From: Desulfoscipio geothermicus DSM 3669
GTDB taxonomy: Bacteria; Bacillota; Desulfotomaculia; Desulfotomaculales; Desulfallaceae
Direction: 5' to 3'
Assembly (NCBI RefSeq): GCF_900115975.1
Contig: NZ_FOYM01000014.1
Coordinates: 1-64,000 of the forward strand
DNA: 64,000 bases
The notes beneath the pieces are model-generated. The model saw only the letters and a list, made by a program, of their open reading frames with translations. It did no database searches and was not told the DNA's origin. Shown here in pieces: positions 2,229-36,986 of the stretch (position 1 is the first letter of the stretch; every line of letters starts with the position of its first letter). The position numbers were made by a program, and so were the translations under genes.

Positions 2229-2232
2229 CGTA

Positions 2233-13435: not shown

Positions 13436-13439
13436 ATTA

Positions 13440-15852: not shown

Positions 15853-15880
15853 AAAACACCCCCTCGAATAAAACAAAAAA

Positions 15881-16094: not shown

Positions 16095-16106
16095 CAATAA
16101 TTCCCC

Positions 16107-16958
16107 CTATGAATTGTAAATTTTAATTGTTTCCAGAATAATAGGCATAACTACAAAGCAGACCGTTGTTAATATAGCCGACAGGACAAGATAAACCGTA
16201 ACTTTGGGTTTTAACTTGGATGCCTTTGTGAACAACTCCAATTCTTTTCTGTTTCGGAAGGTACGGTTCAGGTCCCGGAGGTAATTAGCAATGGCAGATC
16301 CTTTTTCGGCGTGTTTAAGTACGAGGGCCAATTCATCCGCCTCGGCTAGATTGTACCTGGCAGCCATATTGGAAAACACAAAGTGTAACGGCTTTCCAAG
16401 GCGTACCTGATCTATGACGTTTTTCAACTCCCGGGCCAGCAGGGTTTCCCCTTCGGCGGACCATTCCAAAACCCTGACCGGCATCAGACCGCCGGTTGCA
16501 GCAATTTCCATTCTCCTGCTTAAATTGATTAAATCCTCTCGAAAAGACTCCCGCCCCCTTTCTGCGTCTGCCTTAATTTTTGCCCATGGAGCCACAACAG
16601 CGGCGAAAGTAAATAGCATAACTATCCACGGGTCGATTACTCCTCCAAGACAAAGACTCAAGGCGCTTACCAAGACCAGACCGACAAAGGCTGCCATAAT
16701 GCCGACAAAATCAATGGCCTGCAGATTGTATGGTCTACCGGCTAATTTTAGTTTGAAGTCGATTTCCTCCATGTTCAGGTTAATACCGACAGCAATTAAC
16801 AACCGGTTTGTGATCCTGTATAATTCCTTGATAATATCCTTTTTGTTCTGTGGTTTGGATGTTAACAGTATTTCAAAAATTGAATGTCTTCGGTAAGAAA
16901 TAATACCCAGGCCAAAGCAGGCCACAGAAGCAAATACGGCAAGCGTAAAATAGAACAT
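16107..16958 (-). CDS. tadC: TadC inner-membrane platform protein
   Basis: GspF-type membrane protein that, with TadB, forms the platform turned by the CpaF ATPase. About 283 residues from the ATG at 16958. A longer open frame to 17162 overlaps another gene and is rejected. It has N-terminal hydrophobic segments, a cytoplasmic helical domain containing LINLSRRMEIAATGGLMPVR, and a C-terminal membrane helix (VYLVLSAILTTVCFVVMPII). The position after TadB fits the family. Confidence 0.85.
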   Translation of the reverse strand: MFYFTLAVFASVACFGLGIISYRRHSIFEILLTSKPQNKKDIIKELYRITNRLLIAVGINLNMEEIDFKLKLAGRPYNLQAIDFVGIMAAFVGLVLVSALSLCLGGVIDPWIVMLFTFAAVVAPWAKIKADAERGRESFREDLINLSRRMEIAATGGLMPVRVLEWSAEGETLLARELKNVIDQVRLGKPLHFVFSNMAARYNLAEADELALVLKHAEKGSAIANYLRDLNRTFRNRKELELFTKASKLKPKVTVYLVLSAILTTVCFVVMPIILETIKIYNS

Positions 16959-16960
16959 TT

Positions 16961-17287
16961 TTACCAACCCCCGCGCAATGTAATAACCAGTTGCCTGAAC
17001 AAAGCCGCCGACCACCCTATAACCACCGCGAGAACCCCCGGGTTTTTGTACGAAAACAGCGCTAACATCATGGAAATCAGAATTTCCGCCAACCCCGCGA
17101 CAAGTGTTCCGGTTTTGTTTCCGAAACAACTCTGAATCAGGGCGCGAATGATTATTCGGCATAAAAAAAGACCTATCAGGGCGATTACAATACCTCCGAT
17201 TATGTCACCAATGGACCATGAGAGATGTTCAAAAAAATATAACGCATCGTTATATGAAGAAATAATCTCCAATAAAATCACCACCAA
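16961..17287 (-). CDS. Small membrane protein between TadB and TadC
   Basis: A 108-residue, very hydrophobic protein with about three membrane segments (around residues 29-47, 62-78 and 82-98). It ends 2 bases before the TadC start and begins just after the TadB stop, so it is translationally embedded in the pilus operon. It is not a standard Tad gene, and no family was recognised. It may be an added platform subunit. Confidence 0.7.
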   Translation of the reverse strand: MVVILLEIISSYNDALYFFEHLSWSIGDIIGGIVIALIGLFLCRIIIRALIQSCFGNKTGTLVAGLAEILISMMLALFSYKNPGVLAVVIGWSAALFRQLVITLRGGW

Positions 17288-17296: not shown

Positions 17297-18169
17297 TTAC
17301 AAGTTCCTGGCCTGTTTAATCATGTACTGCGTTATTGACCAGCAGATTACGACTATAACTGTTCCCACGAGGTATATGGTCGGGTTTTCATGCAATGTTT
17401 GCCAGTGAACGCCCTGGCGGTCCATCAACAACAAAAGAAAAAGCCCCAGCGGGAAAATATGGGCCAGAAGTGCTGTGTATTTAATTTCCGAAACATTGGC
17501 TTTGACCTGCATCATATACCTTTCTCTGAATCTTACATGTTCTGCAGCTGATTCCAGTATTTCGCCGGTATTCTCACCCCCGCCCAGTTCGCTGATCACG
17601 CGTACTGTTTGGGCAAGTTCTTTCAAGTCGGGCAGGTTGAATTCTGCGATAGCTTTTTCAATGGCCTGGTGCGCTGTAAACCCGTGATCCACACCATCCA
17701 CGATGTATTGAAATACCGTACCCGCCGGTGCGGGAAATTCATTTGCAATATGTTTAAAACCATCATATAGTGTGCCGGTTCTCGCGCAAACGGCCAGGGT
17801 CGTTGTAACCCGCGGCAGTTGCTTTTCAAAAGCTTTTTGGGTTTGCTCGTTTTTAAATTGAATGAATAACCGTGGAACGGTTATAACACCCAGTATACCG
17901 AACACAATGCTCAGATAACCGTTTATTGCAAAGCCCAGTACAATGCCAACGGCCGCGCTTAGTATGGCCACCTTCTGCACTTCTTCGCGATTATGACTGT
18001 ATTCCTCAAGCCTCCAGACATTATCCCAAAAATTGCTTTTATTATTTGACCGGCTTGTCTTGCCAAATAACATTTCCTTGAATATTGATGTCCTGCCCCG
18101 ATAGATTATTCCCGCGCCCAAGCATAAGATTGACAGAAAAACAGAAACGCAAAGCAAAAATACTAACAA
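17297..18169 (-). CDS. tadB: TadB inner-membrane platform protein
   Basis: A 290-residue GspF/T2SSF-domain protein, partner of TadC in the Tad assembly platform. N-terminal hydrophobic segments precede a cytoplasmic domain with the typical stretch LPRVTTTLAVCARTGTLYDG. It contains the conserved ELGGGENTGEILESAAEHVR and ends with two membrane helices. It follows CpaB and precedes the small membrane protein, all closely spaced. Confidence 0.87.
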   Translation of the reverse strand: MLVFLLCVSVFLSILCLGAGIIYRGRTSIFKEMLFGKTSRSNNKSNFWDNVWRLEEYSHNREEVQKVAILSAAVGIVLGFAINGYLSIVFGILGVITVPRLFIQFKNEQTQKAFEKQLPRVTTTLAVCARTGTLYDGFKHIANEFPAPAGTVFQYIVDGVDHGFTAHQAIEKAIAEFNLPDLKELAQTVRVISELGGGENTGEILESAAEHVRFRERYMMQVKANVSEIKYTALLAHIFPLGLFLLLLMDRQGVHWQTLHENPTIYLVGTVIVVICWSITQYMIKQARNL

Positions 18170-18202: not shown

Positions 18203-18796
18203 TTAGTTTTCGTTTGCCGGCAGCAATAACAGCGCGATGGATTTTCCGTCACTTTGGGCGCTTAAAATATTATCGGCCTCTTTTGGTGTTACGGCTAATA
18301 CCACTGCCTTTGATTCCTCCCGGGGTACGGCTAAAACAGTCACATCTGTACCTACCTTTACGGTCTGACCTTTAACTGAAGCCATAATATCCACTGCATC
18401 TCCCGGCCGGATGGTTTCGCCCACCGTTGTTTCTATGCCAGAGGGTATAGCCAGCGCCACTCTACCTTTCATGGCGGCGAGCTTGGCGGGAATGCCGGCC
18501 TTTGAGACCGGTTGGAACATTGATTTTCTAAGAATTGTGCCGGCCGGTATATACCCCTTTGCGCACATGTTCGCCAGTTCGGCGGGTTTTAATATAGTAT
18601 CGCTCTGCAGCGCTCCCCTGGGGGTTTTGCCCAGCACTACATTATGGGGAGTGGCGGTTTCATCGGGATGTATGTCTGTGCCGGCCACCGCCACGTATAC
18701 CATCCGGTTGACGTTGTTGTACCCGTACGCAAATATAGCTGCCGCTATTAAGGCAAAAACAACGGTACCTATAAAAAATAATTTATAGTTCTTCAT
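18203..18796 (-). CDS. cpaB: CpaB/RcpC-like SAF-domain pilus protein
   Basis: Periplasm-facing or wall-zone assembly factor of Tad pili. About 197 residues from the ATG at 18796, which lies 1 base past the CpaF stop. The longer open frame runs into cpaF. It has one N-terminal membrane helix and then a SAF-type domain (YIPAGTILRKSMF) followed by the RcpC-like region GRVALAIPSGIETTVGETIR and PGDAVDIMAS. It is shorter than many CpaB proteins but complete in layout. Confidence 0.85.
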   Translation of the reverse strand: MKNYKLFFIGTVVFALIAAAIFAYGYNNVNRMVYVAVAGTDIHPDETATPHNVVLGKTPRGALQSDTILKPAELANMCAKGYIPAGTILRKSMFQPVSKAGIPAKLAAMKGRVALAIPSGIETTVGETIRPGDAVDIMASVKGQTVKVGTDVTVLAVPREESKAVVLAVTPKEADNILSAQSDGKSIALLLLPANEN

Positions 18797-18797: not shown

Positions 18798-20117
18798 TTA
18801 ATGATCTCCTTTTCTACCTGAGATTGTAAATATTTGCTGCGGCACGGATATTTTCCGCCTGGCCATTTTCTCCAATGCTCGCCTGGGAATGTATCCCGTG
18901 GGCACCATTTCATCGCCCCGGCGCACAAAAATATCTTTTGTCTCCACGGGTTCTCCATTGGAAATTTGCACTTCGGAAATGTGAGTGCAGACACGCTTTT
19001 CCGTTTGGGTTGCAGGGTCGTACTCTTTCCCCATTTGTACTATTAAATCTATTGCGGAGCTGATAATAAGATTTCGTGTAGCTTGATCCATGCCGGCGGC
19101 TTCAGGTGATTGGCCCATTAGCATTGGTATTTGTACCCGGACGGTATCCAGCGGTGTTTCAGAGTGCAATGTGCCCATTCCGCTCTGTCCTGTGGCCATG
19201 GCACGCAGCAAATAAAAAATAGCACCGTCCCTGACCTCGGCGATAAGTATTCTGGTTGCCCTGGTCTGTAGGGCGTGCTTTAGTATGGTACCAATACCGA
19301 TTTCACCTTTACCTTCAATATTGGGCTGTCTCGCCACATAGTTGCGCAAATACGGGTGTTTTAAAGGACATTCCCTGACTTCCTCCACCAGAACGGGCAA
19401 CTCCAGTTGATCGAACTCGTGACCGAGCACAGCGATCAAAGTGGTTTTACCCGCACCCATCGGGCCGGTAATCATTACGTTCAAGCGGCCTTTCGCAGCC
19501 AGCTTGAGAAATAAGGCGCCTGCGGCCGAAAAGGTGGCTGGTACCATGCTGTCGATATTGCCTATATATACGAACTTCCTGATGGCCAGGTACACGCCAT
19601 CCCCCAGCGGAGGTATGGATACAGCCACCCGGTGACCTTCCGGTAGAGTTAAAGACACAGACGGGGTTGACTCGTCTATCTTGCACCGTCCCAGATAACA
19701 CAGCCGTTCAACGAATAGTCTCAAGTGCGCTTTACTCCGAAACGTAATGCCAGTGGCGGGGATTAGTTCACCGTCCTGCTCGTATAGGATTTTATCGTAG
19801 TCAGTAACCACAATATCAGTTACAGTCGCGTTATCCATTAGTTCCTGAAGCGGCCCGTAGCCTGCCAGTTCGTTGCGTATCTGGCGGGCTATATTAACCC
19901 GATCGGTATAGCTCAGGTTGCGGTTTTGTGTCAAATGATTGGATATTTCATCTTCCAACTGGTTACCGTCAAGCTCCTGGCCTTTCTTATAAAGGTTTAA
20001 TATGTGTTGGCGGCACCCTTCCACCACTTCTTCCATATGTCCGTATATTTTATCTTCAGTTTCTTTTTGCCGCCGCTGGCGTAAAATATCCGAAGTTCCG
20101 GGTAATGATCTTTCCAT
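18798..20117 (-). CDS. cpaF: CpaF/TadA secretion ATPase
   Basis: Hexameric secretion ATPase (VirB11/GspE superfamily) that powers Flp pilus assembly. Of 439 residues, the N-terminal part is helical, the Walker A GPMGAGKT is at 218-225, the Walker B-like LIAEVRD is at 291-297, and a His-box histidine is at 318 (GTLHSETP). It is the only VirB11/CpaF ATPase in the block, so it may also serve the conjugation-type channel encoded upstream. It starts just after the preceding MinD-like gene. Confidence 0.93.
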   Translation of the reverse strand: MERSLPGTSDILRQRRQKETEDKIYGHMEEVVEGCRQHILNLYKKGQELDGNQLEDEISNHLTQNRNLSYTDRVNIARQIRNELAGYGPLQELMDNATVTDIVVTDYDKILYEQDGELIPATGITFRSKAHLRLFVERLCYLGRCKIDESTPSVSLTLPEGHRVAVSIPPLGDGVYLAIRKFVYIGNIDSMVPATFSAAGALFLKLAAKGRLNVMITGPMGAGKTTLIAVLGHEFDQLELPVLVEEVRECPLKHPYLRNYVARQPNIEGKGEIGIGTILKHALQTRATRILIAEVRDGAIFYLLRAMATGQSGMGTLHSETPLDTVRVQIPMLMGQSPEAAGMDQATRNLIISSAIDLIVQMGKEYDPATQTEKRVCTHISEVQISNGEPVETKDIFVRRGDEMVPTGYIPRRALEKMARRKISVPQQIFTISGRKGDH

Positions 20118-20120: not shown

Positions 20121-21521
20121 CTAATTCCCACCCTTTTTAAACGTGAATAAGTTTGTAAACAGCTTTTTAAAAAATCCTTTTTGTTCGATTTGCGTTGACT
20201 GAGTAAATAACTCACGGGGGAAGAAGTGACGCAGAAACTTTTCCATCTCCCTTGTAAACGGCGTGTCGTGTGCGCCCAAGTACGGTACCCTTGACCTGCG
20301 GGACAGCATTTCGTATACTTCGTTATCCCGCGGCAACTGGTGTCTCACGGGAAAACCGCCGGTCGCTTCAGGTATGGATTCATTGAGCTTGAAAGGGTCC
20401 TTACCGGGCGGGACTTTATTTGCAACCAGTGATATATTCGGATCACCGTTAATATATCTGATGGTATCCGTGGTGAAATCAACCAGGTTATCCAGTACGG
20501 GCAATTCCGGTGAGAACACTATCAGCAGTTCATCTGAGTTTTCCATGGCTGATAACGTAGGATCGCTTAAAGTGTTCCCACCGTCTATCAGTATCACGGC
20601 AAAATGGCGACGTAATACATCAATGGTTTTTTGCACCAGGTCATATGTTAATTTATTATCCGTCATTCCCCTGATCGGTGGCAGAATATAGAGGTTTTTA
20701 CGTATTTCAATAAGGTAAGCTAACACAACATCCCGGTTGCCGCGCATCTGCCACGGAAAGTCGCTCCAGGCCGACAATGTTTTCTCCCGTGGCCGCGGGC
20801 CGTTATAATGATCGTCTTTTTTAATCGAAGTAATTATTTTTTCTTTAGCATCTGCGAGATAGCCAAAATAGCGAATCACATCGCCATAGGCCCTGTTTAT
20901 GTCAAGGTCTAAAACCACCACCTTGAGATTGGTGACTGTCGCTATACTCTGGGCCATAGATACTGTGAGCACTGTTTTGCCGGGATTGCCGCCTTTTTGA
21001 CCAAAAACGGTGATGACTTTTTTATCGACCGGGACTCCGCGGTTTGATAGTTCTCTCCGGCGCACTTCATCTATCCTGGCGTTGCTGCCGGTTGAATCGT
21101 CTTCGTTTTCATCCAAATCTTCAAATAAGGTTTTATCCTTATTGTTTCTTACTGCACTGTGTTTAATTAGCTCAGGGCGCTCAGCGAAGTATTTATTGAT
21201 GGTCTCCAGTTCAAAGCCTTCCCGGGCCAGTTTTAATTTATATTGCGCCCATTTTCGGTATGCCGTGGCCATGTCGTCAACGGACACAAAAATAACGCTT
21301 TGAACTTCGTGTCTGGTGGCTACATCAATCATTAGCTTAATTTCGTCGTCTGAAAATCCCAAAAGGACGGCATCTGCGCCCTTGGCGCTGTTTTCAAGGG
21401 CCTCCACTGCCTGGGATGGTTCAGTGGCCAAGTTGATAATCCTTATTTGCGAATAATCATTATTTTGCCTTTCGATCCGGTCTGTAAATTCTCTCGGACC
21501 GGCAAGTAAAAGTTTTATCAT
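20121..21521 (-). CDS. MinD/CpaE-like protein with an altered P-loop
   Basis: A 466-residue protein with a receiver-like N-terminal part (about residues 1-120) and a MinD/ParA-type ATPase domain. The nucleotide loop reads KGGNPGKT at 176-183, one residue longer than the usual KGGVGKT, yet it keeps the Lys-Thr pair. The switch-like segments VVLDLDINRAYGD and VILIDGGNT follow. In Tad systems CpaE/TadZ sets the polar site of pilus assembly. This is the fourth such protein in a row and is nearest to CpaF, hence probably the working localiser. Confidence 0.82.
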   Translation of the reverse strand: MIKLLLAGPREFTDRIERQNNDYSQIRIINLATEPSQAVEALENSAKGADAVLLGFSDDEIKLMIDVATRHEVQSVIFVSVDDMATAYRKWAQYKLKLAREGFELETINKYFAERPELIKHSAVRNNKDKTLFEDLDENEDDSTGSNARIDEVRRRELSNRGVPVDKKVITVFGQKGGNPGKTVLTVSMAQSIATVTNLKVVVLDLDINRAYGDVIRYFGYLADAKEKIITSIKKDDHYNGPRPREKTLSAWSDFPWQMRGNRDVVLAYLIEIRKNLYILPPIRGMTDNKLTYDLVQKTIDVLRRHFAVILIDGGNTLSDPTLSAMENSDELLIVFSPELPVLDNLVDFTTDTIRYINGDPNISLVANKVPPGKDPFKLNESIPEATGGFPVRHQLPRDNEVYEMLSRRSRVPYLGAHDTPFTREMEKFLRHFFPRELFTQSTQIEQKGFFKKLFTNLFTFKKGGN

Positions 21522-21533
21522 ATGAACATCTCC

Positions 21534-22559
21534 CTATGTCTGAATTTTTGCAGCCAGTTTACCCATGCCCATGGCTATTGTTTCACTTTTCTTATATGCT
21601 GGTTCCCCGGATGCCAGGGCTGCGTAACAGCCTTCAAAGTCGGTTTTAATTGTAATGACGTTTTGCCCCAGTATGTCTTCTACAATCTCTGTGCCGATGT
21701 CGGGTATGGCTTTGTTGTATACAAAAAGTGCGTTCTTTATTGCAGCAGGTTCAATGGATTGGACCACGTCACTGTCTATAACCACGACGGTTTTATCAGC
21801 TTCAACTGACTGAATATGCTTGTAATCAGGCTGAGGCGAAAAGTCTACAACTACCCATCTATATTCTTTGCGCAGTATATCAATTAGTGGGCCAATTTTA
21901 TCTGAGTTCAGCTTCCATACCGGAGCAGGCGGCACATATAGGTCCCAGTATTCTGTTTGGGCCAGTAAAAAACCGTCTTTTTTATCAAATTGAGGGTTGC
22001 CGCAGTGATGTTTTGCATTTGGCGGAATACCCAGGTCAACGACGGCAATTTTGCCGCCATTTTCGTGCAGTAGCATTGCAAGGCTGGTAGTGATCGTTGT
22101 GGTACCTACCCCACCTCTAAAACCTCTAACGGCTATAACTTTAATTCTGTTTGTTACGGGTGCAGGGCCTGCGGATTCTTCTTCATCTTCAAAAATAAAA
22201 ACATCCTCGTCATTGTCGTTGGCGAGAATGTTTTGTTGAATGCTTAAAATTTTTTCAATTATAGCATTTACAGAAAGACGTTGGCCGGCAGGCAGCAGGA
22301 AGATATTATCTTCCGGTACACCGGCTTTGGTAGCTCTGTTACTGAATGCAATTCCAGTTTTATCAGGCGTGCCGGCTATTACTATACAATTTTGAGGGGT
22401 TACAAGGTATTCCGTTGGGTCGTCTATACCGCCGGTTTTGTTTTTGCGAATGACAATTGATATAATACCTGGCTCCTTATAGTTTTCCGTTAATGTTAAT
22501 CCTGTTTCATTGGCAATTCTGTCGGTAAATTTTTGCGGTAACATGCTAAATAACTTCAT
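21534..22559 (-). CDS. TadZ/CpaE-like protein lacking the P-loop lysine
   Basis: A 341-residue MinD-fold protein. The deviant Walker loop reads RGGVGTTT at 148-155, with Thr where MinD has the catalytic Lys, as in several TadZ proteins that bind but poorly hydrolyse ATP. An N-terminal atypical receiver-like region is followed by the acidic linker NDNDEDVFIFEDEEE. It lies 12 bp upstream of the previous MinD-like gene and is part of the four-gene MinD series. Probable role: localisation scaffold for the pilus machine. Confidence 0.82.
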   Translation of the reverse strand: MKLFSMLPQKFTDRIANETGLTLTENYKEPGIISIVIRKNKTGGIDDPTEYLVTPQNCIVIAGTPDKTGIAFSNRATKAGVPEDNIFLLPAGQRLSVNAIIEKILSIQQNILANDNDEDVFIFEDEEESAGPAPVTNRIKVIAVRGFRGGVGTTTITTSLAMLLHENGGKIAVVDLGIPPNAKHHCGNPQFDKKDGFLLAQTEYWDLYVPPAPVWKLNSDKIGPLIDILRKEYRWVVVDFSPQPDYKHIQSVEADKTVVVIDSDVVQSIEPAAIKNALFVYNKAIPDIGTEIVEDILGQNVITIKTDFEGCYAALASGEPAYKKSETIAMGMGKLAAKIQT

Positions 22560-22560
22560 G

Positions 22561-23811
22561 TCAACCCCTCCTAAACATAGACTTCAAGCCAGAAAACAAT
22601 GATTTCTTTCCCCCACCAACTAATTGTTCTTCATAAGCTAGTTGCTGGAAGGGCAAGCGCTTACTGGCTATTACTTTTACTGCATTCCCTGCTGTACTGC
22701 CGTTAAGCTGGATTGCAAGTTTGCGATTTTTTTTGGCTGCATTTACTCCCTGAGTATCCAACGGAATTTCATCATAGCTATCAAAACCCAGTTTTTTCGC
22801 TACTTCTTTTGGAGTGTAATAACCAGTTGGTACAACCATGTTAATCACAAGTTTCATTTTCTTTGTGTGGGCATTTTCGGTACCTAAAAATTGAGTTAAC
22901 TTACCAATCGTTTTTTCGTCCTGGCCGCCGATTAAGAAGACTGTATCAGCTAGATTTAACGCTGTCCGGGCATGTGGTGAGAAAGCATCTACGCCCAGGT
23001 CAATTACTACCAGGTCAAATTGCTCGGCCAGGGTTAAAATTAAGTCTTCAATTTCAGTGCCCGGTATTTCGTTGCCGGCGTATGGATAACACGGAAGAAC
23101 ATATAGTCCCGAGTTATGACGTAACAGGCTTCCTTTCAGGTCTCTTGCAAATCTGCGCCATTCGGCTACGGTGGCCCAACCGTTTTTAGGTACGACAGCT
23201 TTTTTATCAAGAACTTTATCTCTTTGGCGGGGGTCTACCAGGCCCATTGCTGTATCCATGTCTCCAAAACCAAAGTCCAGGTCAACTGCTACTGTTGATA
23301 TTCCCACCAGTGCTGCACAGCCCCCCATATTTATGCTTGAAAAAGTTTTTCCTACACCACCGGATGCAGAAAATGAAGCTGCTATATAGCCTCGTTTATT
23401 AAATGACTGGTTAAAAATGCTTGTATGTTGGGGCTTATCTTGTACCTTATTTATTGATGTCACGGTATCATGTTGGTGTGTAACAGGGGTATTTTCTTCG
23501 AATGTATCTTCTTCAAATTCAAAAGAAATGTCCGGTTCTTCTTGTTGTTCAAATGTTTGAAGATAGCTTTCTATTTTACCAGGTAGTGATTCTAAGTTTG
23601 CATGTTTAAATTTTTGAATTATCTTCCATTCTTTTAAATTAACCATCCCCGTAATTACAACGATTACGCTTGAATTATCAGTTAATCTGTTAAGCTCGTC
23701 GTAATAACCGGGTATTTCAATTACCGTGCATACCGCTGATTGAGGTTTGCTGGTAATTTCAAAAGCCGCCAGAGCCTCGGTCAATTTTTTTGAACCTTTT
23801 ACGCAGATCAA
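22561..23811 (-). CDS. MinD-type ATPase with canonical P-loop
   Basis: MinD/ParA-family protein, about 416 residues from a TTG at 23811 that follows an AGGAGG ribosome site by 9 nt. The longer frame to 23886 overlaps the upstream gene. The canonical loop SGGVGKT falls near residues 150-156, with LDFGFGDMDTAMG and VVIDLGVDAFSPHA as switch regions. The N-terminal 150 residues are acidic and unrecognised. This is the only member of the four-gene series with an intact MinD Walker motif, so it may supply ATP hydrolysis for the set. Confidence 0.82.
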   Translation of the reverse strand: MICVKGSKKLTEALAAFEITSKPQSAVCTVIEIPGYYDELNRLTDNSSVIVVITGMVNLKEWKIIQKFKHANLESLPGKIESYLQTFEQQEEPDISFEFEEDTFEENTPVTHQHDTVTSINKVQDKPQHTSIFNQSFNKRGYIAASFSASGGVGKTFSSINMGGCAALVGISTVAVDLDFGFGDMDTAMGLVDPRQRDKVLDKKAVVPKNGWATVAEWRRFARDLKGSLLRHNSGLYVLPCYPYAGNEIPGTEIEDLILTLAEQFDLVVIDLGVDAFSPHARTALNLADTVFLIGGQDEKTIGKLTQFLGTENAHTKKMKLVINMVVPTGYYTPKEVAKKLGFDSYDEIPLDTQGVNAAKKNRKLAIQLNGSTAGNAVKVIASKRLPFQQLAYEEQLVGGGKKSLFSGLKSMFRRG

Positions 23812-23824: not shown

Positions 23825-25525
23825 CTATACTTGAAGTATCTTAAAGTCCATGTCGGACAGGTGTTGCAATAAATCTTGCCGTGCACCTAAATTGACAATT
23901 ACCTTTATTTTTTGATCCCTTTGGGCGTTAATAATCTCTTTTAAACATCTAACATCTCTTTCTTCCAGAGTTTCTTCTAATTCTTTGTCCATACCGTAAT
24001 AACGAACTTTCTTACTAATTTTAGCCGGAGTTGCCGCTAGGCCAAGGCGCCAGTCGTGCTGCCAAATGCGGTTCGGGTTCACACCCAACATGAAAGCAAG
24101 ACTGGCGTTTTCCAGGTCAGCATCTATAATTGTTAAAGGTTTCTTTACTTTGCTTTTTACTAAACTCATAATGGCGTACGTTCCCCCGTTGCAAACAGCT
24201 ACCAGTGGATCTTCCGGAATAGTGATTTTTTTATGCAGCATGTTTTTAACTATAGAGGCGGATTCAACCCTCCCCCGACCGGAACGCTTTACTCTGTACA
24301 ATGCTTCGTCAGCGGCTTTTATTACTGCTAGAGGTGTGTTGCCATGTATTCCTATTTGTGCAACACCGCCGGAGTATAAGACGTTTTTGTTGTCAATGCA
24401 GGCAAAATTTTTACGGTTCCATTCGTTGCACATTTTTTCAGCTAAGTTGAGGGCGCCGGCTATTTCGGTTTCCGGAAGAACGACCACAAATTCATCGCCG
24501 CCGTAACGAATTACATAGTCAGACCGGCGGGTGGATTTAAGCAGGAAATCCCCGAATGCTCGGAGTATCTCGTCCCCTGCGGCATGCCCGTATGTATCGT
24601 TTATCATCTTAAAATTATCCAGATCGCAGAACAGGACGGAAAAAATTCCGTCCTGTTCTGCTAAGTACTTTTCCAGTGCAGCCCGGTTAAGACAGCCGGT
24701 CAGGTGATCTACGTCTGCTTTTTTATCAATTAGATCCATAGTTGAAAGGCTGCAATCATTCTGTACTTGATCCTCTCGTTGATAAGCGAGGTGGTTTGCA
24801 AAAGATACTCTATTGAATGTAATCTTTTCATTTAAAAGATTGACATCTTGAGCTGCGAGCCGGCGAATTGCGGTGCAGGCCTTGCCCTTTCCATAGAAAA
24901 CTAGTGGTAACCGTTTTTTTTGGGCTTTATTGATATGCTTTGGTTCAAACGGAATGGTTGTAAATTTTTCAAAATCAAGGTAACGGGCCACATCCCGGGG
25001 GCGGTAATATGCCTGCGGTGAGGCTTTATTTATTACAAGTTTAAATTTATTCCACTGGTGCTCTATTGTTTTGAAGTACCTTGAAAGTGTTTCTACGCAT
25101 TCCAGGGTTGGGATGGCAATTAAGTAAATGTAATTACAAGCGTTTATTATTGCCTTAGTATCCTGACGATTAGGATCGTTGCCAAGGTCTATTATTATTA
25201 GTGTGTATTTGGAATTCAGTGCTTCAAGTAGTTTATCAGGTTCAAATTTTTTATCTTGAAGGCCTGACAGGCCAGGTAATACTGTTAAACCATATGATGT
25301 TTTTAGTGCAATTTCTTCTAAATTTAAATCATCTTTGTTAAACGGGGTGAATAAAAAATTGAGGGCTTTTTCCCTCATAAATAAAGCCCCCAATATATCG
25401 CCTTGCCTTGTTTCTGTAAGGATAGTTTTATTGATATGCTGCGCCGCCCATGCAGCCAAATTTGCTGAAAAAAAAGTGGTACCGGCGCCGCCGGTGGTTG
25501 ATACGATACCGATTATTTTTGGCAT
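23825..25525 (-). CDS. MinD-like domain fused to a GGDEF diguanylate cyclase
   Basis: A 566-residue, three-part protein. Residues 1-240 are MinD-like, with a loop TGGAGTTF (12-18) that lacks the Walker lysine. Residues 273-420 are a GGDEF domain with intact YGGDEF (GGDEF at 342-346) and an inhibitory RxxD site (RRSD, 333-336) five residues upstream. Residues 430-566 look like a second, partial MinD-type fold (LTIIDADLENASLAFML). The protein is predicted to make c-di-GMP with product inhibition and to tether that activity to the pilus localisation proteins. It heads the four MinD-family genes. Confidence 0.88.
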   Translation of the reverse strand: MPKIIGIVSTTGGAGTTFFSANLAAWAAQHINKTILTETRQGDILGALFMREKALNFLFTPFNKDDLNLEEIALKTSYGLTVLPGLSGLQDKKFEPDKLLEALNSKYTLIIIDLGNDPNRQDTKAIINACNYIYLIAIPTLECVETLSRYFKTIEHQWNKFKLVINKASPQAYYRPRDVARYLDFEKFTTIPFEPKHINKAQKKRLPLVFYGKGKACTAIRRLAAQDVNLLNEKITFNRVSFANHLAYQREDQVQNDCSLSTMDLIDKKADVDHLTGCLNRAALEKYLAEQDGIFSVLFCDLDNFKMINDTYGHAAGDEILRAFGDFLLKSTRRSDYVIRYGGDEFVVVLPETEIAGALNLAEKMCNEWNRKNFACIDNKNVLYSGGVAQIGIHGNTPLAVIKAADEALYRVKRSGRGRVESASIVKNMLHKKITIPEDPLVAVCNGGTYAIMSLVKSKVKKPLTIIDADLENASLAFMLGVNPNRIWQHDWRLGLAATPAKISKKVRYYGMDKELEETLEERDVRCLKEIINAQRDQKIKVIVNLGARQDLLQHLSDMDFKILQV

Positions 25526-25573: not shown

Positions 25574-26590
25574 TCAATTGTTTCCCGACGGAACAGCCAG
25601 CCATTCTTCCGGGTTGCATGGCTGGCCGTTGACGTAAACCGAAAAGTGCAGGTGCGGGCCTTCCGAAAGCCCGGTGGAGCCTACGTAACCTATTACCTCT
25701 CCGGCCTTTACCATAACGCCCACCTGCACGGATATTTCAGACAGGTGGGCATAAAGGGTTTTACAGGAGCCGTGGTTTAAGACAACGCATAACCCGTATC
25801 CGCCTTTCGCCCGGTCCCAATCCACCCGACCGTCCTGCACGGCAAACACCGGTGTACCGGTCGGGGCCGGGATGTCTATTCCGTCGTGAAATCGGTATTC
25901 CTTCAGAATGGGGTGTTGGCGCATACCATAAGCCGATGATATCTGTATATATTTCGACGATAACGGCCAGGTACCGTTACCCACCGGTATCATCGTGGCT
26001 GAGTAGGTTGATGCCAGTTCCATAACTTCTCTGACGTACCACCCGGCATGGTTGTAAGCAAATAATGCTTTCTCGGGTTTCTCTGCAAAGCCGTTGGATT
26101 GGAGCATGTTGGCCGCTGAAAAAACCGCATCCCAGGGGTCATAAGGGTCGAATTCTCCGTCACTATTTCCATCTTGTTTGTATTTGTTCCACGTGTCGGG
26201 CATAAACTGCATAAAGCCTATCGCTCCAGCGTCTGACGGCCCCATGTTTTGGCCAAACGCCGATTCAGTTTTCGCTATGGCCGCCAGCACTGCCCAGGAT
26301 ACATCGTATTTGCTCTGGGCCTTTAGAAATATGGGCATGTATTCGACGGGTATATCCGCTACGGCAAAAGCGGTGGGCGCACCGGAACGAAACCCTGCCT
26401 CATTTCCCCCGCCCAGACCGCCGATTATGGTTGAAATTAAAAAAAAGAAAAATAACATCAATACTAATATAACTCCCATTAACAGGAGTACGATTTGTTC
26501 AATTCCGATAAGCAGTTGTGACCTTTCTTCTTCCGAAGTGGCCAGGCGTTTGGCCTTTTGGGCAACTTTTAATACTGTTGCAGGATTCAC
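25574..26590 (-). CDS. Bifunctional wall hydrolase: lytic transglycosylase plus M23 peptidase
   Basis: Cell-wall opening enzyme (TcpG/VirB1-like) for a surface machine. About 338 residues from a GTG at 26590, chosen because GGGGAGGG lies 6 nt upstream and a terminator blocks the longer frame. It has one membrane helix near residues 33-53 and a goose-type/SLT domain with Glu in AIAKTESAFGQNMG and AIGFMQFMPDTW. An M23/LytM endopeptidase domain has metal ligands in FHDGIDI and HLHF. Conjugative Gram-positive systems usually pair SLT with NlpC/P60, so the M23 partner is a variation. Confidence 0.92.
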   Translation of the reverse strand: MNPATVLKVAQKAKRLATSEEERSQLLIGIEQIVLLLMGVILVLMLFFFFLISTIIGGLGGGNEAGFRSGAPTAFAVADIPVEYMPIFLKAQSKYDVSWAVLAAIAKTESAFGQNMGPSDAGAIGFMQFMPDTWNKYKQDGNSDGEFDPYDPWDAVFSAANMLQSNGFAEKPEKALFAYNHAGWYVREVMELASTYSATMIPVGNGTWPLSSKYIQISSAYGMRQHPILKEYRFHDGIDIPAPTGTPVFAVQDGRVDWDRAKGGYGLCVVLNHGSCKTLYAHLSEISVQVGVMVKAGEVIGYVGSTGLSEGPHLHFSVYVNGQPCNPEEWLAVPSGNN

Positions 26591-26610
26591 CCAATCCCTC
26601 CCCCATAAAA

Positions 26611-26642
26611 ACAACCCCGCCATGTAAGACCGGCGGGGTTGT
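26611..26642 (-). terminator. Strong terminator upstream of the wall hydrolase gene
   Basis: A perfect 11-bp stem (ACAACCCCGCC/GGCGGGGTTGT) is followed on the minus strand by TTTTTATG. It probably ends the type I toxin-2 message. Confidence 0.75.
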
Positions 26643-27084: not shown

Positions 27085-27693
27085 TTATTTTTCTTTCATG
27101 TTCTTTACGCCCGGCGGAATCGCCCTGGCGGTATCCAAAGAAGTGCCTGTTACCGGTTTATCTTTCTTACTTTCTTTGTTACGGGTAGGCCTTTGTTCGG
27201 ATGAAGTTGGCGGAAGTTGTTTGTTGCGTTGTTCTTCCGGGTGATTATCTTCCAATACAGTACCTGTAGTATCCAGAGTTGCTTTCGACTTGTTGATATG
27301 TGTTGTAGCGTCCGGAATTTCTTTGTAAGGCCAGTTTTCAGGCGGCTGCCCTTCCCAGGCCGGCGATCTTCTTTGCTGTTCCGGCCCGAGCACCTCCGGG
27401 ATTAGAGGCTTGTTACCGGTATTGTTTCCAGGCGGCGGAGGATTTTGATTATTTCGGCTGGTTTGCCCGCGCCGCGAAAACCACCAGTCGGTAAGCGCGT
27501 CTGTTACTCCAAGCCGCCTCGCCATTGTCTTGCTGGTGTTAATAATTTTTTGGGTGTCAAGTTTCCCGTCCAGCGAAGCGTTTCCTTTTTTAATTGTATC
27601 AAAAATCAAATTTAAAAATTTTTTCCTGTAAATGGCGGCACCAAAAAAAATTGCTGCCATTACAATCATAGCCAACCCGAGATTTCCCTGCAT
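27085..27693 (-). CDS. Membrane-anchored, low-complexity T4SS-block protein
   Basis: A 202-residue protein with one N-terminal membrane helix (residues 5-20), a short helical segment, and a long disordered Pro/Asn/Gln/Lys-rich tail. It overlaps the stop of the VirB6-like gene by 1 base. No family was recognised. A single-pass anchor with a flexible cytoplasmic or wall-facing tail is consistent with an accessory channel component. Confidence 0.65.
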   Translation of the reverse strand: MQGNLGLAMIVMAAIFFGAAIYRKKFLNLIFDTIKKGNASLDGKLDTQKIINTSKTMARRLGVTDALTDWWFSRRGQTSRNNQNPPPPGNNTGNKPLIPEVLGPEQQRRSPAWEGQPPENWPYKEIPDATTHINKSKATLDTTGTVLEDNHPEEQRNKQLPPTSSEQRPTRNKESKKDKPVTGTSLDTARAIPPGVKNMKEK

Positions 27694-29144
27694 TATCCCA
27701 TCACCGCCCTTGCAAAACCGGTAGCTATGATCAGTACCAGGGAAAGATATAACCCGTATATCAATTTAACCATAAAAAAGCCGGCTGTCATTTTAAAATA
27801 TGAAGTGGCAAGCGCCCAACCGGTTTCCGGTATCATCATGGCAAACAGCGCCATGGGCAATACCAAAAGCAATGCCGCCAGCGCCACCTGGCATACCAAT
27901 ATGGAAAGCGCTACTGTGCCGGCCAGGATGGCAAAGCCAAGCGACGGTAAAAGGGTGAACCCGGCTGTCATGATGTGTGTGCCCACGCTGTCGGGGGACA
28001 GTCCCACCACAGACCCGGGGTGGGCTCCATGGTCCACTTCTTTTCCTTTCATTACCCAACGGGGCACCCATAATAATTTTGCATTGGGGCGACCAAGCGC
28101 TTCGGCCACGGCATTGCGGCCATCCTTGCTGCCGCAGCCCAAAAAAAGCGTGTCGATACGCATGCCGGGCTTGATTTTTGCCTGGCTAACTCCGGGAAAC
28201 ACAGTTTTATCAAGCACTTCATATTCACTTTGGGTTAATAGCAATCTTGACTCGTCAGCAGTACCGAACATTGCCAGTGCCCACGGTTTGGCCACGATAC
28301 CTTGCCATACCGTTTGACCGGCCAATACCAGGCCGCGATCCACGGGATCATCAATGTTGACATTCTGGCCTTGGGTGGTGTACTCGCCCACTGCCCCGAG
28401 AAATGCCCCTGCCAAAGAATCACTTGCCCTGGATACGCCGGCAATGATTTGCTGCGCGTTGGTCGTGAAGAAAAACACGCAGCCAACAGCCAGCGCGGCC
28501 ACAAGCGTGGCGTTTAAAGCACCCATGGCCTGGCCGCGCAGTAAGCGAAAGGAGATATACATCAGGAGAAGTATTAACCCAATGGTCATGAGCAACTTTG
28601 TGAAATCATCGCCGGGCGCAAATATACTTGCCACGCCTTCGGACACCCAACCCACCATGCCGGAGACGATATCGGTGTGAAACGCCAACACCGTGGCGTT
28701 TATGGACACTCTGGTGATCGTCTTGGAAATATTAAAAATCATATTGGCTATAAATTCTCCGGCCCCGGCCTTGGCGCGTTCCCCCAGTGACAGCTGATCG
28801 ATAAATTTGTCCGGAGGTACGTGATGGAAAACGTACCGCCCCATGGGCCAGTTTTCCCAGATGGCGTTTTCCGGCCTGGCTATTTGTGCCAGGCCCGTGC
28901 TTACAAATCCGGCACCGGCCACCACCATAAAAAACGGCTCGCCGCCTGTAGCAACCGCGCCAAGCACGGCAGCTTTGGTGCCCAACCCGACTATATTAAA
29001 TAGCTGGCCTTCCATTTCTTTTTCGGATTGCACGTCTCCCAACAGGTTCCACTGATCGCATGGTTGCTCGCCTATAGCCAGGGCGATCCCCGGGGTAATA
29101 AATAATAAAACGATTATTAGCAAAAAAGAGAGGTGCTTCTTCAT
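27693..29144 (-). CDS. VirB6/TrbL-like (TcpH-like) channel membrane protein
   Basis: A 483-residue polytopic protein with a signal-like N-terminus (residues 1-23). Membrane helices gather around residues 185-235 and in the last 100 residues (LGFAILAGTVALSILVCQVA and beyond). This long loop followed by a C-terminal hydrophobic cluster is typical of VirB6/TrbL/TcpH proteins that form the inner-membrane channel. The position directly after the VirB4 gene supports it. Assigned by layout and context, since sequence motifs in this family are weak. Confidence 0.75.
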   Translation of the reverse strand: MKKHLSFLLIIVLLFITPGIALAIGEQPCDQWNLLGDVQSEKEMEGQLFNIVGLGTKAAVLGAVATGGEPFFMVVAGAGFVSTGLAQIARPENAIWENWPMGRYVFHHVPPDKFIDQLSLGERAKAGAGEFIANMIFNISKTITRVSINATVLAFHTDIVSGMVGWVSEGVASIFAPGDDFTKLLMTIGLILLLMYISFRLLRGQAMGALNATLVAALAVGCVFFFTTNAQQIIAGVSRASDSLAGAFLGAVGEYTTQGQNVNIDDPVDRGLVLAGQTVWQGIVAKPWALAMFGTADESRLLLTQSEYEVLDKTVFPGVSQAKIKPGMRIDTLFLGCGSKDGRNAVAEALGRPNAKLLWVPRWVMKGKEVDHGAHPGSVVGLSPDSVGTHIMTAGFTLLPSLGFAILAGTVALSILVCQVALAALLLVLPMALFAMMIPETGWALATSYFKMTAGFFMVKLIYGLYLSLVLIIATGFARAVMG

Positions 29145-29217: not shown

Positions 29218-31632
29218 TCAATCCCCCTTTTGGACTGTTTTCACTTTCGGAGACGTATCGAATAAGTCAAGCAGGTACTCCGGGCGGGGGTCGATGTACA
29301 CCTGCCCGATGCGGCCCTGGGCGTCTCTCATGATGCACCAGCCGTCTCTCATAGTTGGGAATATGGTTCCCAACCCTCTTTCGTAATTCTTTTTCTCTTC
29401 GTTATCTGCGCCCAGCAATTCCAAATTGGCCATAATCTCGTCTTTATCTTGAGCCCGGAAGCATAATATATAGCTTACGTTGTTCTTTATCGTTTGCAGG
29501 TCGGCAATGTCTGTGGTATTTTGGGTGATCAAAATCGGTATAACACCATAGCTGCGGGCACCCATGCGGATCAGTTCGTCCACCACCCTTTTGCCTTCCG
29601 AAATTCCCAGCAGCATCCAAGCTTCGTCAAACACCTCACATTTTATGATTTCAACCGGAAGTGTAAAAGCTACCTCCCGGGCCATCACCGCAGCCAGGTA
29701 AAGTACCGCAAGGCCCTGGCGTTCGCTTTCGGTAATCCGCCCCGCCAGCAGGTTCTGCGCCGCACGGGGCAGCGGCAGTCCCTGTAAGTTAACAATTGTC
29801 ACCTGCGATATTTTGTTATCCGTATCAGTGCCGAAAACCAGGTGTCCCAAACTGCCGTCCCGTAACGATTCCAGAAGCAGAGCGCATTGCCCGGCTTCCT
29901 GCGCAACGGCAACATGAGGGCTTTCTTTGGACAGGCGATGTAGTTCATCAAGGCACGAGTGCAGGTTACGCTTTTCAGGCGGCATCGCCGCAACCGCTTC
30001 CACCGCCTGGCTTACAGCCACCCGGCGGGAGTCGTTGTCTTCACGTACGTTAAGGGCCACACTTAGAAAGTCCAGTACGATGCTTTTGGCCCGGCGAGGG
30101 TCTTTGGCAAGCATAAAGGGGTTAAATTTCTCTCTGCCCCCGGGATTTAAGTCAATTTTTCTAACCGGGAACAGTTTTTCCAGTACAGCATATTCGTTGT
30201 TCTTGGGGTCGATTATGAACATGTAACCGCCCGCAAGGCGCACGAAATAAATCATGTCTTTTATTGCCATGCTTTTGCCGCCGCCCAGGGCGCCGCTGAC
30301 AAATATTGCGTTTGAACGATTAAGTTCCCGTCCGGCATAACCGGGCTGCCACCAGACCGGCGAAGCGCCGGACCAGCCCAGAAAAAAACCGCGTGTATCA
30401 CCAACCTCCAGCGATATAGTCGGGCCGGATGAGGAAATAAACCCGGGGTCACATTCTATCATGGGCGCTGCCGGCTTGGCTCCGGGGATAAATGAGTAAA
30501 GACATTTGATTTGATCGCCTGCCGGGCGCACGGCCCTGAAACCGGATGAGGAATATCTTTCCATAAGTCCCACGGCCGTGGCCCGAGCTTCTTTTAACTC
30601 CGAATTTGCCACCGCAAGGCATACAGACATCGACGCTAAAGGTTGGCCGCTCTCCAATTTTCCTTCCAGTGAACGGCCTTCGGTAACACCATATTCTTCG
30701 CTTTCGCTGGGTTCGTCATCTCCTTTCAGCGCTTCCTTAATCTGACCCTTCAAGAAACGCCTTCGGGTGGCTGTTTTCTTTTTGGCCTTATATGGCCGCA
30801 AGATGTTAAAGTGCACTACCGCATCAACGGATGATTCTTCCGTGTCTAAACTGGCCAGCCATTCAGCCCCGATTTCCGGCAAGCCCTTGGGGACATCAGG
30901 AAAGGTCACAAATACCTGGTGGTGCCGTTCGTCGGCGCCGTTGGTGATAACTACGTGACCAGGGCCTTCGTCGATAAGGCAACCGTCGGAAAAACTGCTG
31001 ATTAAAGCCGGCGTAAACTTGCCGCCGTCACGGGAAGGCAAAGGCGGAGGGAGTACCCCTACCCGCCATACATTGCGCCTGATGATGAAATCAAGATCAT
31101 TGAAGTTTATACGCCCGTCTATAAGCAGCCGCAGGCGGCGGAACATCTGGTCTTCGGCTTCCAGTGCTTCTTTTACGCGCCGGCTGGATAAAAGCCACCG
31201 TTCCGAACGAAAAAAAGCGCCTAATGTGGCATCCCGGAATTCCTGCAAGGCAGACTGCCAGTTATCGTCCTGGCCAAGACGCAGTTGAAGGACCAGATAA
31301 CGCCGGCGATGTCGTGCCCCCATGACCATGGCGTTGCGAACTGACCTGGCATGCCGTGCCGCTTCATCGGCCAGCTGCCGGGAAAGATTGCCGGATACCC
31401 CGGCAGCGGCCATGTAGCCGCTTTCATCCAACCGCAGTTCCTCACAGAGCAGAAGGATCTGTCCGTTACCTTCAAAGCCATAGAAAAATTTTTCCAGCCT
31501 GCGCACCACCATTTCCCGGTGGGTTCTGGGCAAGTGGTTGTACGGTTCGCCGCGCAGCCGGTAGATGGCATATGCTTCACCCGTGTCGTTAAATACAATG
31601 TTATTTTTGAACGCGACCAAGGGAAACTTCAT
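29218..31632 (-). CDS. VirB4/TcpF-type conjugation ATPase
   Basis: Large cytoplasmic ATPase of type IV secretion systems, 804 residues. Walker A GALGGGKS falls near residue 448 and the Walker B-like EVFDEAW near 672, in the usual DUF87/VirB4 arrangement. The N-terminal 430 residues fit the VirB4 family region. Its start overlaps the stop of the TcpE-like gene (ATGA). It is the strongest single indicator that this block encodes a conjugation-type channel. No VirD4/TcpA coupling ATPase accompanies it. Confidence 0.93.
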   Translation of the reverse strand: MKFPLVAFKNNIVFNDTGEAYAIYRLRGEPYNHLPRTHREMVVRRLEKFFYGFEGNGQILLLCEELRLDESGYMAAAGVSGNLSRQLADEAARHARSVRNAMVMGARHRRRYLVLQLRLGQDDNWQSALQEFRDATLGAFFRSERWLLSSRRVKEALEAEDQMFRRLRLLIDGRINFNDLDFIIRRNVWRVGVLPPPLPSRDGGKFTPALISSFSDGCLIDEGPGHVVITNGADERHHQVFVTFPDVPKGLPEIGAEWLASLDTEESSVDAVVHFNILRPYKAKKKTATRRRFLKGQIKEALKGDDEPSESEEYGVTEGRSLEGKLESGQPLASMSVCLAVANSELKEARATAVGLMERYSSSGFRAVRPAGDQIKCLYSFIPGAKPAAPMIECDPGFISSSGPTISLEVGDTRGFFLGWSGASPVWWQPGYAGRELNRSNAIFVSGALGGGKSMAIKDMIYFVRLAGGYMFIIDPKNNEYAVLEKLFPVRKIDLNPGGREKFNPFMLAKDPRRAKSIVLDFLSVALNVREDNDSRRVAVSQAVEAVAAMPPEKRNLHSCLDELHRLSKESPHVAVAQEAGQCALLLESLRDGSLGHLVFGTDTDNKISQVTIVNLQGLPLPRAAQNLLAGRITESERQGLAVLYLAAVMAREVAFTLPVEIIKCEVFDEAWMLLGISEGKRVVDELIRMGARSYGVIPILITQNTTDIADLQTIKNNVSYILCFRAQDKDEIMANLELLGADNEEKKNYERGLGTIFPTMRDGWCIMRDAQGRIGQVYIDPRPEYLLDLFDTSPKVKTVQKGD

Positions 31633-32012
31633 CTGTCAATCACCTCCGGTAGATGCCAGTCAAGCCGGTGCTTGCGCAGGCGGCAAATCGATCTTCCCGC
31701 CAGATTGGTGGTTTTGGGCCGGAACAGGTAACTTAATAAGTCAGCGATAAAAACGGGCAGAAATTTACCCTGCGGGTCCATCTGGGTTAGCAACCACGAT
31801 AGCCCTCCAGCAATTAAAATGGTCATTACCCACGGGTGTGCCGGAAAAACAAGGTAGCCCACGGGCAAAAGGGGGAAAAACAGGATTATAGTCATAAATA
31901 GTGCATCCAGGGGGATGGCCCGGGGAAGAACCTTGCCTCCGAAATCATAAATTTTGAAGTTAATTTTGAATAACGACCTGTAGCTGTTAAATACACGCAC
32001 ATTATCTTCCAT
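31629..32012 (-). CDS. TcpE-like conjugation membrane protein
   Basis: A 127-residue protein with two central membrane helices (about residues 37-57 and 60-78) and a C-terminal SYLFRPK motif. This matches the TcpE-type, PrgI/VirB3-like subunits that stand directly before VirB4 ATPases in Gram-positive conjugation loci. The gene overlaps virB4 by 4 bp, so the two products are probably made in step. Confidence 0.78.
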   Translation of the reverse strand: MEDNVRVFNSYRSLFKINFKIYDFGGKVLPRAIPLDALFMTIILFFPLLPVGYLVFPAHPWVMTILIAGGLSWLLTQMDPQGKFLPVFIADLLSYLFRPKTTNLAGRSICRLRKHRLDWHLPEVIDR

Positions 32013-32423: not shown

Positions 32424-33353
32424 TTACTTCACACTGCTTAAATCCTTCACGAGGAAGCTTCCCCTGTCCGCTTTTATTTTCAAGTAAATATATTGCGTTA
32501 AATGTTCCACCCCCGGCGCCGATACGGATACTTGCACAAAAGCCCTGGTGGGGGTATGCTGTGAATCAACCCGAATGTCGTTTACTGATTCAAGTTTCCA
32601 GCCGGTTACCGGTTGAACATTTGCTCCGGGGACGAGAAAGTTGGTCAGCGGGCCGCCGTTATAATATAGATCCAGGAACTGCTTTATGAATGATAAAAAC
32701 TCCGTAGATGCCGGCTCAGTGTACCCCGAAGACGATAGCTGCCCGGTGCCCTTTGCGGGGGGAACAATTACGGGCAAGCCCGTAACAGTGGCTTTGCCGT
32801 CAAGGATTTTTACGGGCACTTCGATACACATTAAATAATTCTGCCATACAGGAACAGGTTTATCCTGTCCGCCGAATCCGCCGAATGTGTCCCGTCCCAC
32901 AAGGGCCAGGTCATCCCTGGTTACCGGCACATATACCTGGGGCAAAGATTGCGCTTCAGGCGAAGTTACCGGCACTAATCGCCGGGTATGCAACATCACA
33001 CGCACCCGGGAAAAATCTCCCTCTTTTTTAGTTGATTCGAGGGAGGCGCTAATTACTTCCTGAATTCCGGCGGGAACCGGAATATTGACCGAATCCTGTA
33101 AAAATGTGCTCAGGCGGTGTTGATAGTCTTCGGTATTTCCCGACCAGGTGCCCCATTCAACGGAAAAGGCCCTGGCTGTTTCGCGGATTTTTGTTATTTG
33201 CAACTCTTGCGCGGAGGTCATGGCCCTGGCGGCTATGTGCCCGGTTTTATTGACTATGTTTACGCTGCGAATGGCAATTGCCACTACAATAAAAATAAGC
33301 AGCCATAAAAGGCCGCCGGCCAACCAGCGATATATGATTCTCCTGTCGATCAT
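32424..33353 (-). CDS. TcpC-like conjugation protein
   Basis: A 309-residue bitopic membrane protein with a short cytoplasmic N-terminus and a helix at residues 10-29. An extracytoplasmic region follows with two NTF2-like halves (around residues 80-190 and 210-309), as in the TcpC/VirB8 family that bridges membrane and channel. Signature-like stretches are ARAFSVEWGTWSG and FIKQFLDLYYNGG. Its position upstream of the TcpD/TcpE/VirB4 run matches Tcp loci. Confidence 0.85.
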   Translation of the reverse strand: MIDRRIIYRWLAGGLLWLLIFIVVAIAIRSVNIVNKTGHIAARAMTSAQELQITKIRETARAFSVEWGTWSGNTEDYQHRLSTFLQDSVNIPVPAGIQEVISASLESTKKEGDFSRVRVMLHTRRLVPVTSPEAQSLPQVYVPVTRDDLALVGRDTFGGFGGQDKPVPVWQNYLMCIEVPVKILDGKATVTGLPVIVPPAKGTGQLSSSGYTEPASTEFLSFIKQFLDLYYNGGPLTNFLVPGANVQPVTGWKLESVNDIRVDSQHTPTRAFVQVSVSAPGVEHLTQYIYLKIKADRGSFLVKDLSSVK

Positions 33354-35487: not shown

Positions 35488-35510
35488 TGTATCACCTTAA
35501 AACATCTTTT

Positions 35511-36920: not shown

Positions 36921-36986
36921 AGCACCTCCGAAAAACCGGGCGTTGCCAGATAGTGCACTTTTTCTTTGTTATGTGTCACTAACAAT

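What the first reader, a model, noticed from the sequence alone, without database searches (positions are those of the whole stretch)
23825..25525. Diguanylate cyclase fused to a MinD-like domain in a pilus locus
One protein joins a lysine-less MinD-type domain, a GGDEF domain with intact active site and RxxD inhibitory site, and a second partial MinD-like fold. This would place c-di-GMP production at the site where the pilus machine is positioned. I know of no standard TadZ with this layout.
Basis: partly seen in the sequence, partly recalled or inferred. Interest (0 to 1): 0.72.

Follow-up and report, generated by a model that had tools for sequence, protein, structure and literature searches.

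The report
Cyclic-di-GMP synthase built into MinD-like protein
The gene encodes an enzyme that probably makes the bacterial signal c-di-GMP, joined to a MinD-like positioning domain, and the same kind of fusion sits at the junction of DNA-transfer and pilus genes in many related bacteria, suggesting that the signal is made at the machine itself.

Summary
Residues 1-232 adopt a MinD fold by prediction and profile comparison and lack both P-loop lysines. Residues 268-424 are a GGDEF domain with intact catalytic and RxxD inhibitory motifs. Residues ~436-566 are a truncated second MinD-like module; this last link rests on homologues only, because structure prediction there failed.

The "pilus locus" is a hybrid: TcpC, TcpE, VirB4 and SLT/M23 conjugation genes upstream, and CpaE/MinD, TadA, CpaB, TadB, TadC, prepilin peptidase and TadE genes downstream, with gaps of at most 48 bp from the SLT/M23 gene to TadB. 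Related elements carry a VirD4-type coupling ATPase 8-40 kb further downstream.

The fusion is not a one-off. GGDEF proteins with MinD- or receiver-like modules, mostly in this slot, were found in 18 further genomes of the phylum, with shuffled domain order. All 19 keep GG(D/E)EF; 17 keep RxxD.

Best reading: an inactive MinD module docks an active diguanylate cyclase at the base of a Tad/conjugation machine. Enzyme activity, localisation and effector are unproven. T4SS-Tad conjugative backbones and mobile-element cyclases are known; I found no report of this fusion. New variant of a known kind.

The parts
23825..25525 (-). MinD-GGDEF-half-MinD fusion protein, 566 aa (P0001)
24830..25525 (-). 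residues 1-232: MinD/CpaE-like domain without P-loop lysines (P-loop region 25475-25501, STTGGAGTT)
24254..24724 (-). residues 268-424: GGDEF diguanylate cyclase domain
24488..24502 (-). GGDEF catalytic motif, residues 342-346
24518..24529 (-). RRSD (RxxD) product-inhibition site, residues 333-336
23828..24220 (-). residues ~436-566: truncated MinD2 module with DWR motif (D491-R493)
   Evidence: structure inconclusive
22561..23811 (-). CpaE/TadZ-like ATPase with GGVGKT; TTG start after AGGAGG
21534..22559 (-). second MinD-like protein, RGGVGTT (no Walker lysine)
20121..21521 (-). third MinD-like protein, KGGNPGKT
18798..20117 (-). TadA/CpaF-type secretion ATPase
18203..18796 (-). CpaB/RcpC
17297..18169 (-). 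TadB-like platform protein (T2SSF)
16107..17162 (-). TadC-like platform protein (T2SSF); true start probably further inside
15915..16097 (-). candidate Flp pilin, 60 aa (inferred from size, position and hydrophobic stretch; no Pfam match)
15346..15876 (-). prepilin peptidase
14896..15327 (-). TadE
13727..14284 (-). TadG/TadE-like
25574..26623 (-). SLT transglycosylase + M23 peptidase, gene directly upstream of the fusion
27693..29144 (-). VirB6-like membrane protein (assigned from position and conservation; no Pfam match)
29218..31632 (-). VirB4-type ATPase
31629..32012 (-). TcpE
32424..33353 (-). TcpC (VirB8-like)

Best explanation
It is a diguanylate cyclase fitted to a Tad/conjugation machine. 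The N-terminal MinD-type domain has lost both P-loop lysines in this protein and its close homologues, so it probably no longer cycles ATP; it acts as a docking and dimerisation module that joins the CpaE-like ring around the TadA motor at the membrane (inferred). Bringing two copies together there would pair the two GGDEF domains, which must dimerise to make c-di-GMP, so synthesis would start where and when the machine assembles (inferred). The RxxD site would cap the output by product inhibition (motif shown, effect inferred). The DWR-bearing half-MinD module probably adds a further docking surface (inferred). The c-di-GMP would favour attachment or pilus extension during mating or surface contact (inferred; effector unknown). 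Shown: fold of the N-terminus by prediction, intact catalytic motifs, co-operon position, recurrence in other genomes.
For: Fold of residues 1-230 and GGDEF. Catalytic motif kept in 19 of 19 fusion proteins and RxxD in 17. Lysine loss shared by the aligned MinD1 domains of this subgroup (also L086). Slot conserved: the gene lies within 71 bp of an SLT/M23 gene in most loci with a complete upstream side, and is followed by CpaE or CpaB, then TadA-B-C. In Caulobacter, CpaE dimers were modelled as a ring round the CpaF motor (PMC13170226). TadZ keeps polar localisation with little or no ATPase activity (PMC13189830). The genome has nine c-di-GMP-I riboswitches. EAL proteins occur in the same elements or beside the slot gene in homologues.
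Against: No activity, localisation or interaction data. No PilZ protein is encoded in the window; the genome's only PilZ hit is on another contig, and Pfam scans of locus proteins showed no known c-di-GMP receptor. Some loci of the same type have slot proteins without GGDEF (L040, L075, L080-L084), so the machine can work without it. The GGDEF tree does not give one clean origin (6 label changes).
Confidence: 0.55

Rival explanations
1. The GGDEF domain is mainly a c-di-GMP receptor or structural part: it binds c-di-GMP at the RxxD site and recruits partner MinD proteins, as BcsE recruits BcsQ, and catalysis hardly matters.
For: Layout resembles BcsE (N-terminal domain, receiver-like, GGDEF-like) acting with the MinD-like BcsQ (PMC7439463). 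RxxD is present in 17 of 19. REC-like domains precede GGDEF in many homologues.
Against: In BcsE the catalytic core is degenerate; here GG(D/E)EF and the metal-site motif are kept in all 19 while RxxD is lost in two, so catalysis looks like the better conserved trait.
Confidence: 0.2
2. It is a regulatory cargo cyclase of a mobile element that raises the whole cell's c-di-GMP to push the host or new recipient towards a sessile, biofilm state; the MinD part has no special role in location.
For: SXT/R391 elements carry DgcK and DgcL, which alter biofilm and motility (PMC10672970). The host has a large GGDEF repertoire and nine c-di-GMP-I riboswitches. Related loci lie on elements with coupling protein, ArdC and integrase genes.
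Against: Known element cyclases are not reported as fused to MinD modules; the repeated fusion and fixed slot inside the machine operon suggest a structural tie.
Confidence: 0.2
3. An ordinary TadZ paralogue into which a GGDEF domain was inserted by chance, with no selected function for the fusion.
For: Slot proteins without GGDEF exist (L040, L075, L080-L084), and domain order differs between lineages.
Against: 19 proteins with intact catalytic motifs across many families of the phylum, mostly in the same gene neighbourhood.
Confidence: 0.05

Closest known systems
TadZ/CpaE (MinD/ParA-family Tad pilus localisation protein)
   Same: MinD-type domain with unusual Walker A motif, encoded with TadA-B-C and CpaB; homologous by hhalign.
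   Different: TadZ is receiver-like plus one MinD domain; here there is a catalytic GGDEF and a second, partial MinD-like module, no receiver-like domain, and a separate CpaE is encoded next door.
BcsE with BcsQ (E. coli cellulose secretion)
   Same: A GGDEF-type domain works together with a MinD-like protein in a secretion machine (PMC7439463).
   Different: BcsE's GGDEF is catalytically degenerate and separate from BcsQ; here the motif is intact and fused to the MinD domain.
SXT/R391 ICE cyclases DgcK and DgcL
   Same: Diguanylate cyclases carried by conjugative elements (PMC10672970, PMC4542580).
   Different: Described as cargo genes; not reported as MinD fusions inside the transfer-machine operon.
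T4SS plus Tad conjugative backbones: Sulfobacillus pL15/pY0017 and Cutibacterium acnes tad plasmids
   Same: VirB4, lytic transglycosylase, coupling protein, MinD-like, TadA, TadB/C and StbA-type genes together (PMC6803676); tad with VirB4 and TcpC (PMC5696575).
   Different: The passages read mention no GGDEF protein; the gene-level comparison with those plasmids was not done.
PleD / WspR (REC-GGDEF cyclases)
   Same: GGDEF fold and motif; PleD is the top structural match. Homologues with receiver-like domains before GGDEF resemble this layout.
   Different: P0001 has no receiver domain; the input module is MinD-like.

Membership tests
GGDEF diguanylate cyclases | GGDEF domain fold | tested here: met
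   Pfam E 1.6e-36; PleD and others Z 23-25
GGDEF diguanylate cyclases | intact GG(D/E)EF and metal-binding DxD motif | tested here: met
   GGDEF 342-346, CDLDNFK
GGDEF diguanylate cyclases | synthesis of c-di-GMP from GTP | not testable with these tools
   needs enzyme assay
MinD/ParA superfamily | MinD fold of residues 1-232 | tested here: met
   phmmer hit to MinD 1ion
MinD/ParA superfamily | deviant Walker A with signature lysine and GK(T/S) | tested here: not met
   STTGGAGTT, no lysine; absent in the aligned homologues too. So a MinD-fold protein, not a canonical MinD ATPase
MinD/ParA superfamily (residues 436-566) | MinD-like fold of the C-terminal module | tested here: inconclusive
   homology only through the MinD2 family; structure low confidence
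TadZ/CpaE | receiver-like N-terminal domain plus MinD domain | tested here: not met
   MinD domain begins at residue 1; no receiver-like domain
TadZ/CpaE | encoded with TadA, TadB, TadC and CpaB | tested here: met
TadZ/CpaE | polar or machine localisation | not testable with these tools
   needs microscopy
Conjugative T4SS locus | VirB4, VirB8-like TcpC, cell-wall hydrolase | tested here: met
Conjugative T4SS locus | coupling protein (VirD4) | tested here: inconclusive
   no match on the window's contig; matches on other contigs of this genome; present 8-40 kb downstream in six relatives
Conjugative T4SS locus | relaxase | tested here: inconclusive
   PF03432 not found near any of the loci; other relaxase families not searched

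The most novel reading that the evidence does not exclude
A DNA-transfer/pilus machine with its own built-in second-messenger generator: assembly or partner contact dimerises the fused cyclase at the machine base, and locally made c-di-GMP gates extension, attachment or transfer, with element-encoded EAL enzymes resetting it.
Probability: 0.3. Interest if true: 0.82.

Novelty: new variant of a known kind. Interest (0 to 1): 0.62.

Why it matters
How a freely diffusing second messenger acts on one machine is an open question. A cyclase covalently joined to the machine's MinD-type positioning module, kept over many families, offers a clean test. It would also link conjugation in anaerobic Gram-positive-lineage bacteria directly to c-di-GMP signalling.

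Tried and rejected
Structure of residues 425-566: full-length and domain-alone models were low confidence and Foldseek gave no match below E 0.001, so the half-MinD claim rests on intermediates. A single origin of the fused GGDEF was not supported by the tree: fusions cluster (6 changes against 17.1 shuffled) but with poorly supported forks. No homologue was found in viral contigs, and the MinD domain has no match among plasmid records. The first hhalign run used an N-terminal alignment that may have held CpaE sequences; I repeated it with seven checked sequences. A PADLOC hit to Cas10 (E 0.001) reflects the known GGDEF/Cas10 palm relationship (own knowledge), not a defence gene. A relaxase search with PF03432 was negative near the loci. 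The genome-contig scan returned only three loci, so organism names for most genomes are unknown. Counts of fusions come partly from searches seeded with GGDEF and are not frequencies.

Full report
OBSERVATION. The stretch 23825-25525 encodes one 566-residue protein on the minus strand; the plus strand is closed by many stops. Pfam gives GGDEF at E 1.6e-36 for residues 270-418; NCBIfam gives weak MinD, BcsQ and CpaE-type matches around E 1e-10 for the N-terminus. AlphaFold from six aligned rows gave residues 1-232 mostly at pLDDT 65-88 (some loops near 50), the GGDEF domain mostly at 80-92, and the C-terminus below 50. Residues 1-230 align with a ParA-family ATPase at Z 24.1, rmsd 2.5 over 221 residues, with E. 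coli MinD at Z 22.7 and with FleN at Z 22.2; the GGDEF part aligns with PleD at about Z 25. A profile of seven N-terminal domains matches a profile of neighbouring CpaE-like ATPases at 99.9% probability, E 2.4e-35. The P-loop region reads STTGGAGTT: both lysines are gone, as they are in all seven aligned homologous domains and in the partial L086 protein. The CpaE-like protein encoded next door keeps GGVGKT.

The catalytic GGDEF (342-346), the DxD metal motif (CDLDNFK) and the RxxD site (RRSD, 333-336) are intact. The C-terminal 130 residues match a second MinD-like module, here called MinD2, at 98.1% (E 1.4e-13); MinD2 in turn matches CpaE at 94.0% (E 1.5e-7); the direct comparison is not significant. 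MinD2 has a conserved DWR motif (491-493 here). Four homologues (window, L039, L079, L090) end at about the same point in this module, so the truncation is a shared trait rather than an accident of this gene.

SETTING. Reading with the minus strand, the upstream genes are TcpC, a small membrane protein, TcpE, VirB4, a VirB6-like protein and an SLT/M23 cell-wall hydrolase. Then come the fusion, a CpaE-like ATPase, two further MinD-like proteins, TadA, CpaB, TadB, TadC, a candidate Flp pilin, a prepilin peptidase, TadE and a TadG-like protein. From the hydrolase to TadB the gaps are at most 48 bp, so the fusion is probably co-transcribed with the Tad genes. The window also has a tyrosine recombinase at 38266-39120. 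No coupling protein or relaxase was found in the window, but in six relatives a VirD4-type coupling ATPase lies 8-40 kb downstream of the equivalent locus, and this genome has such genes on other contigs. The window's contig ends about 12 kb downstream, so its own element may be cut. Related elements also carry ArdC, DUF2786 and actin-like genes and an integrase. This fits a conjugative element, but a relaxase was not identified.

RECURRENCE. Searches of relatives and read-out of the neighbourhoods found GGDEF proteins with MinD-like or receiver-like modules in 18 further genomes. Full hybrid loci with the fusion between hydrolase and Tad genes are seen in L039, L074, L079 and L122; L123 and L127 show hydrolase, fusion, CpaB, MinD-like, TadA, TadB and TadC; several others are cut by contig ends. 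L085 is a broken gene. Domain order varies: MinD-GGDEF-half MinD2 (window, L039), MinD-MinD2-receiver-like-GGDEF (L038), MinD-receiver-like-GGDEF-MinD2 (L122, and L074 with a GKT-bearing second MinD), receiver-like-GGDEF-MinD2 (L090, L123, L124, L126, L128, L129). Receiver-like domains were recognised mostly by eye; Pfam reports one only for L128. The same slot holds proteins without GGDEF in L040, L075 and L080-L084; beside L082 and L084 stands an EAL gene, and two hybrid elements (G048, G077) carry an EAL gene further downstream. All 19 GGDEF motifs are intact; RxxD is lost in L076 and L129. In a tree with 55 other GGDEF domains the fused ones cluster (6 label changes, 17.1 in shuffles), but no single origin is shown.

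MECHANISM. The best reading is a cyclase docked at the machine. Without P-loop lysines the MinD domain should not hydrolyse ATP; TadZ proteins with altered Walker A motifs are reported to have little or no ATPase activity yet still localise (PMC13189830). In Caulobacter, CpaE dimers were fitted as a ring round the CpaF motor (PMC13170226). A MinD-type module joining such a ring would bring GGDEF domains together, which is the general requirement for cyclase activity (established knowledge of GGDEF enzymes). Output, effector and timing are inferred. The main rival is a receptor role like BcsE with BcsQ (PMC7439463), disfavoured by the full conservation of the catalytic motif. A whole-cell signalling role like DgcK/DgcL of SXT elements (PMC10672970) remains open.

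NOVELTY. T4SS-plus-Tad conjugative backbones are described in Sulfobacillus plasmids (PMC6803676) and Cutibacterium acnes plasmids (PMC5696575). Cyclases on mobile elements are known. The searches of open-access papers found no TadZ or MinD fusion to a GGDEF domain; subscription papers and annotation databases were not searchable, so absence of a report is not proof. I class it as a new variant of a known kind.

LIMITS. Nothing here measures c-di-GMP, localisation or transfer. Genome names were not available for most relatives; one related locus is titled Peptococcaceae bacterium BRH_c4a. Because part of the survey was seeded with GGDEF sequences, the proportions are not frequencies.

Noticed in passing
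window 60332-60424 (+) and 60442-62338 (+): A c-di-GMP-I riboswitch lies directly upstream of an HD-domain (HD_5) gene followed by a CBS-GGDEF gene: a c-di-GMP-sensing switch before likely c-di-GMP turnover genes. The genome has nine such riboswitches.
   Followed up: partly
window 20121-23811 (-): Three further MinD-like proteins follow in tandem, with differing P-loops (GGVGKT, GGVGTT, GGNPGKT): four MinD-type proteins in one operon.
   Followed up: no
window 34987-39120 (-): Tyrosine recombinase (38266), DUF2786/DUF7168 (36987), 5'-3' exonuclease (35511) and YdjM (34987) genes upstream of the conjugation genes; a DUF2786/DUF7168 gene also occurs in a related element (L164).
   Followed up: partly
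window 738-2304 (+): Group II intron reverse transcriptase with intron end (RF00029) near the contig edge, a possible cause of the assembly break.
   Followed up: no
L080, L082, L084; L165:15988-16746; L150/L162: EAL-domain genes beside the TadZ-like slot gene or in the same hybrid element in relatives; those in L082, L084, L165 and L150 look catalytically intact by eye.
   Followed up: partly
window 12968-13453 (-): PIN-like ORF of 161 aa downstream of the Tad genes (recognised by eye, not tested).
   Followed up: no
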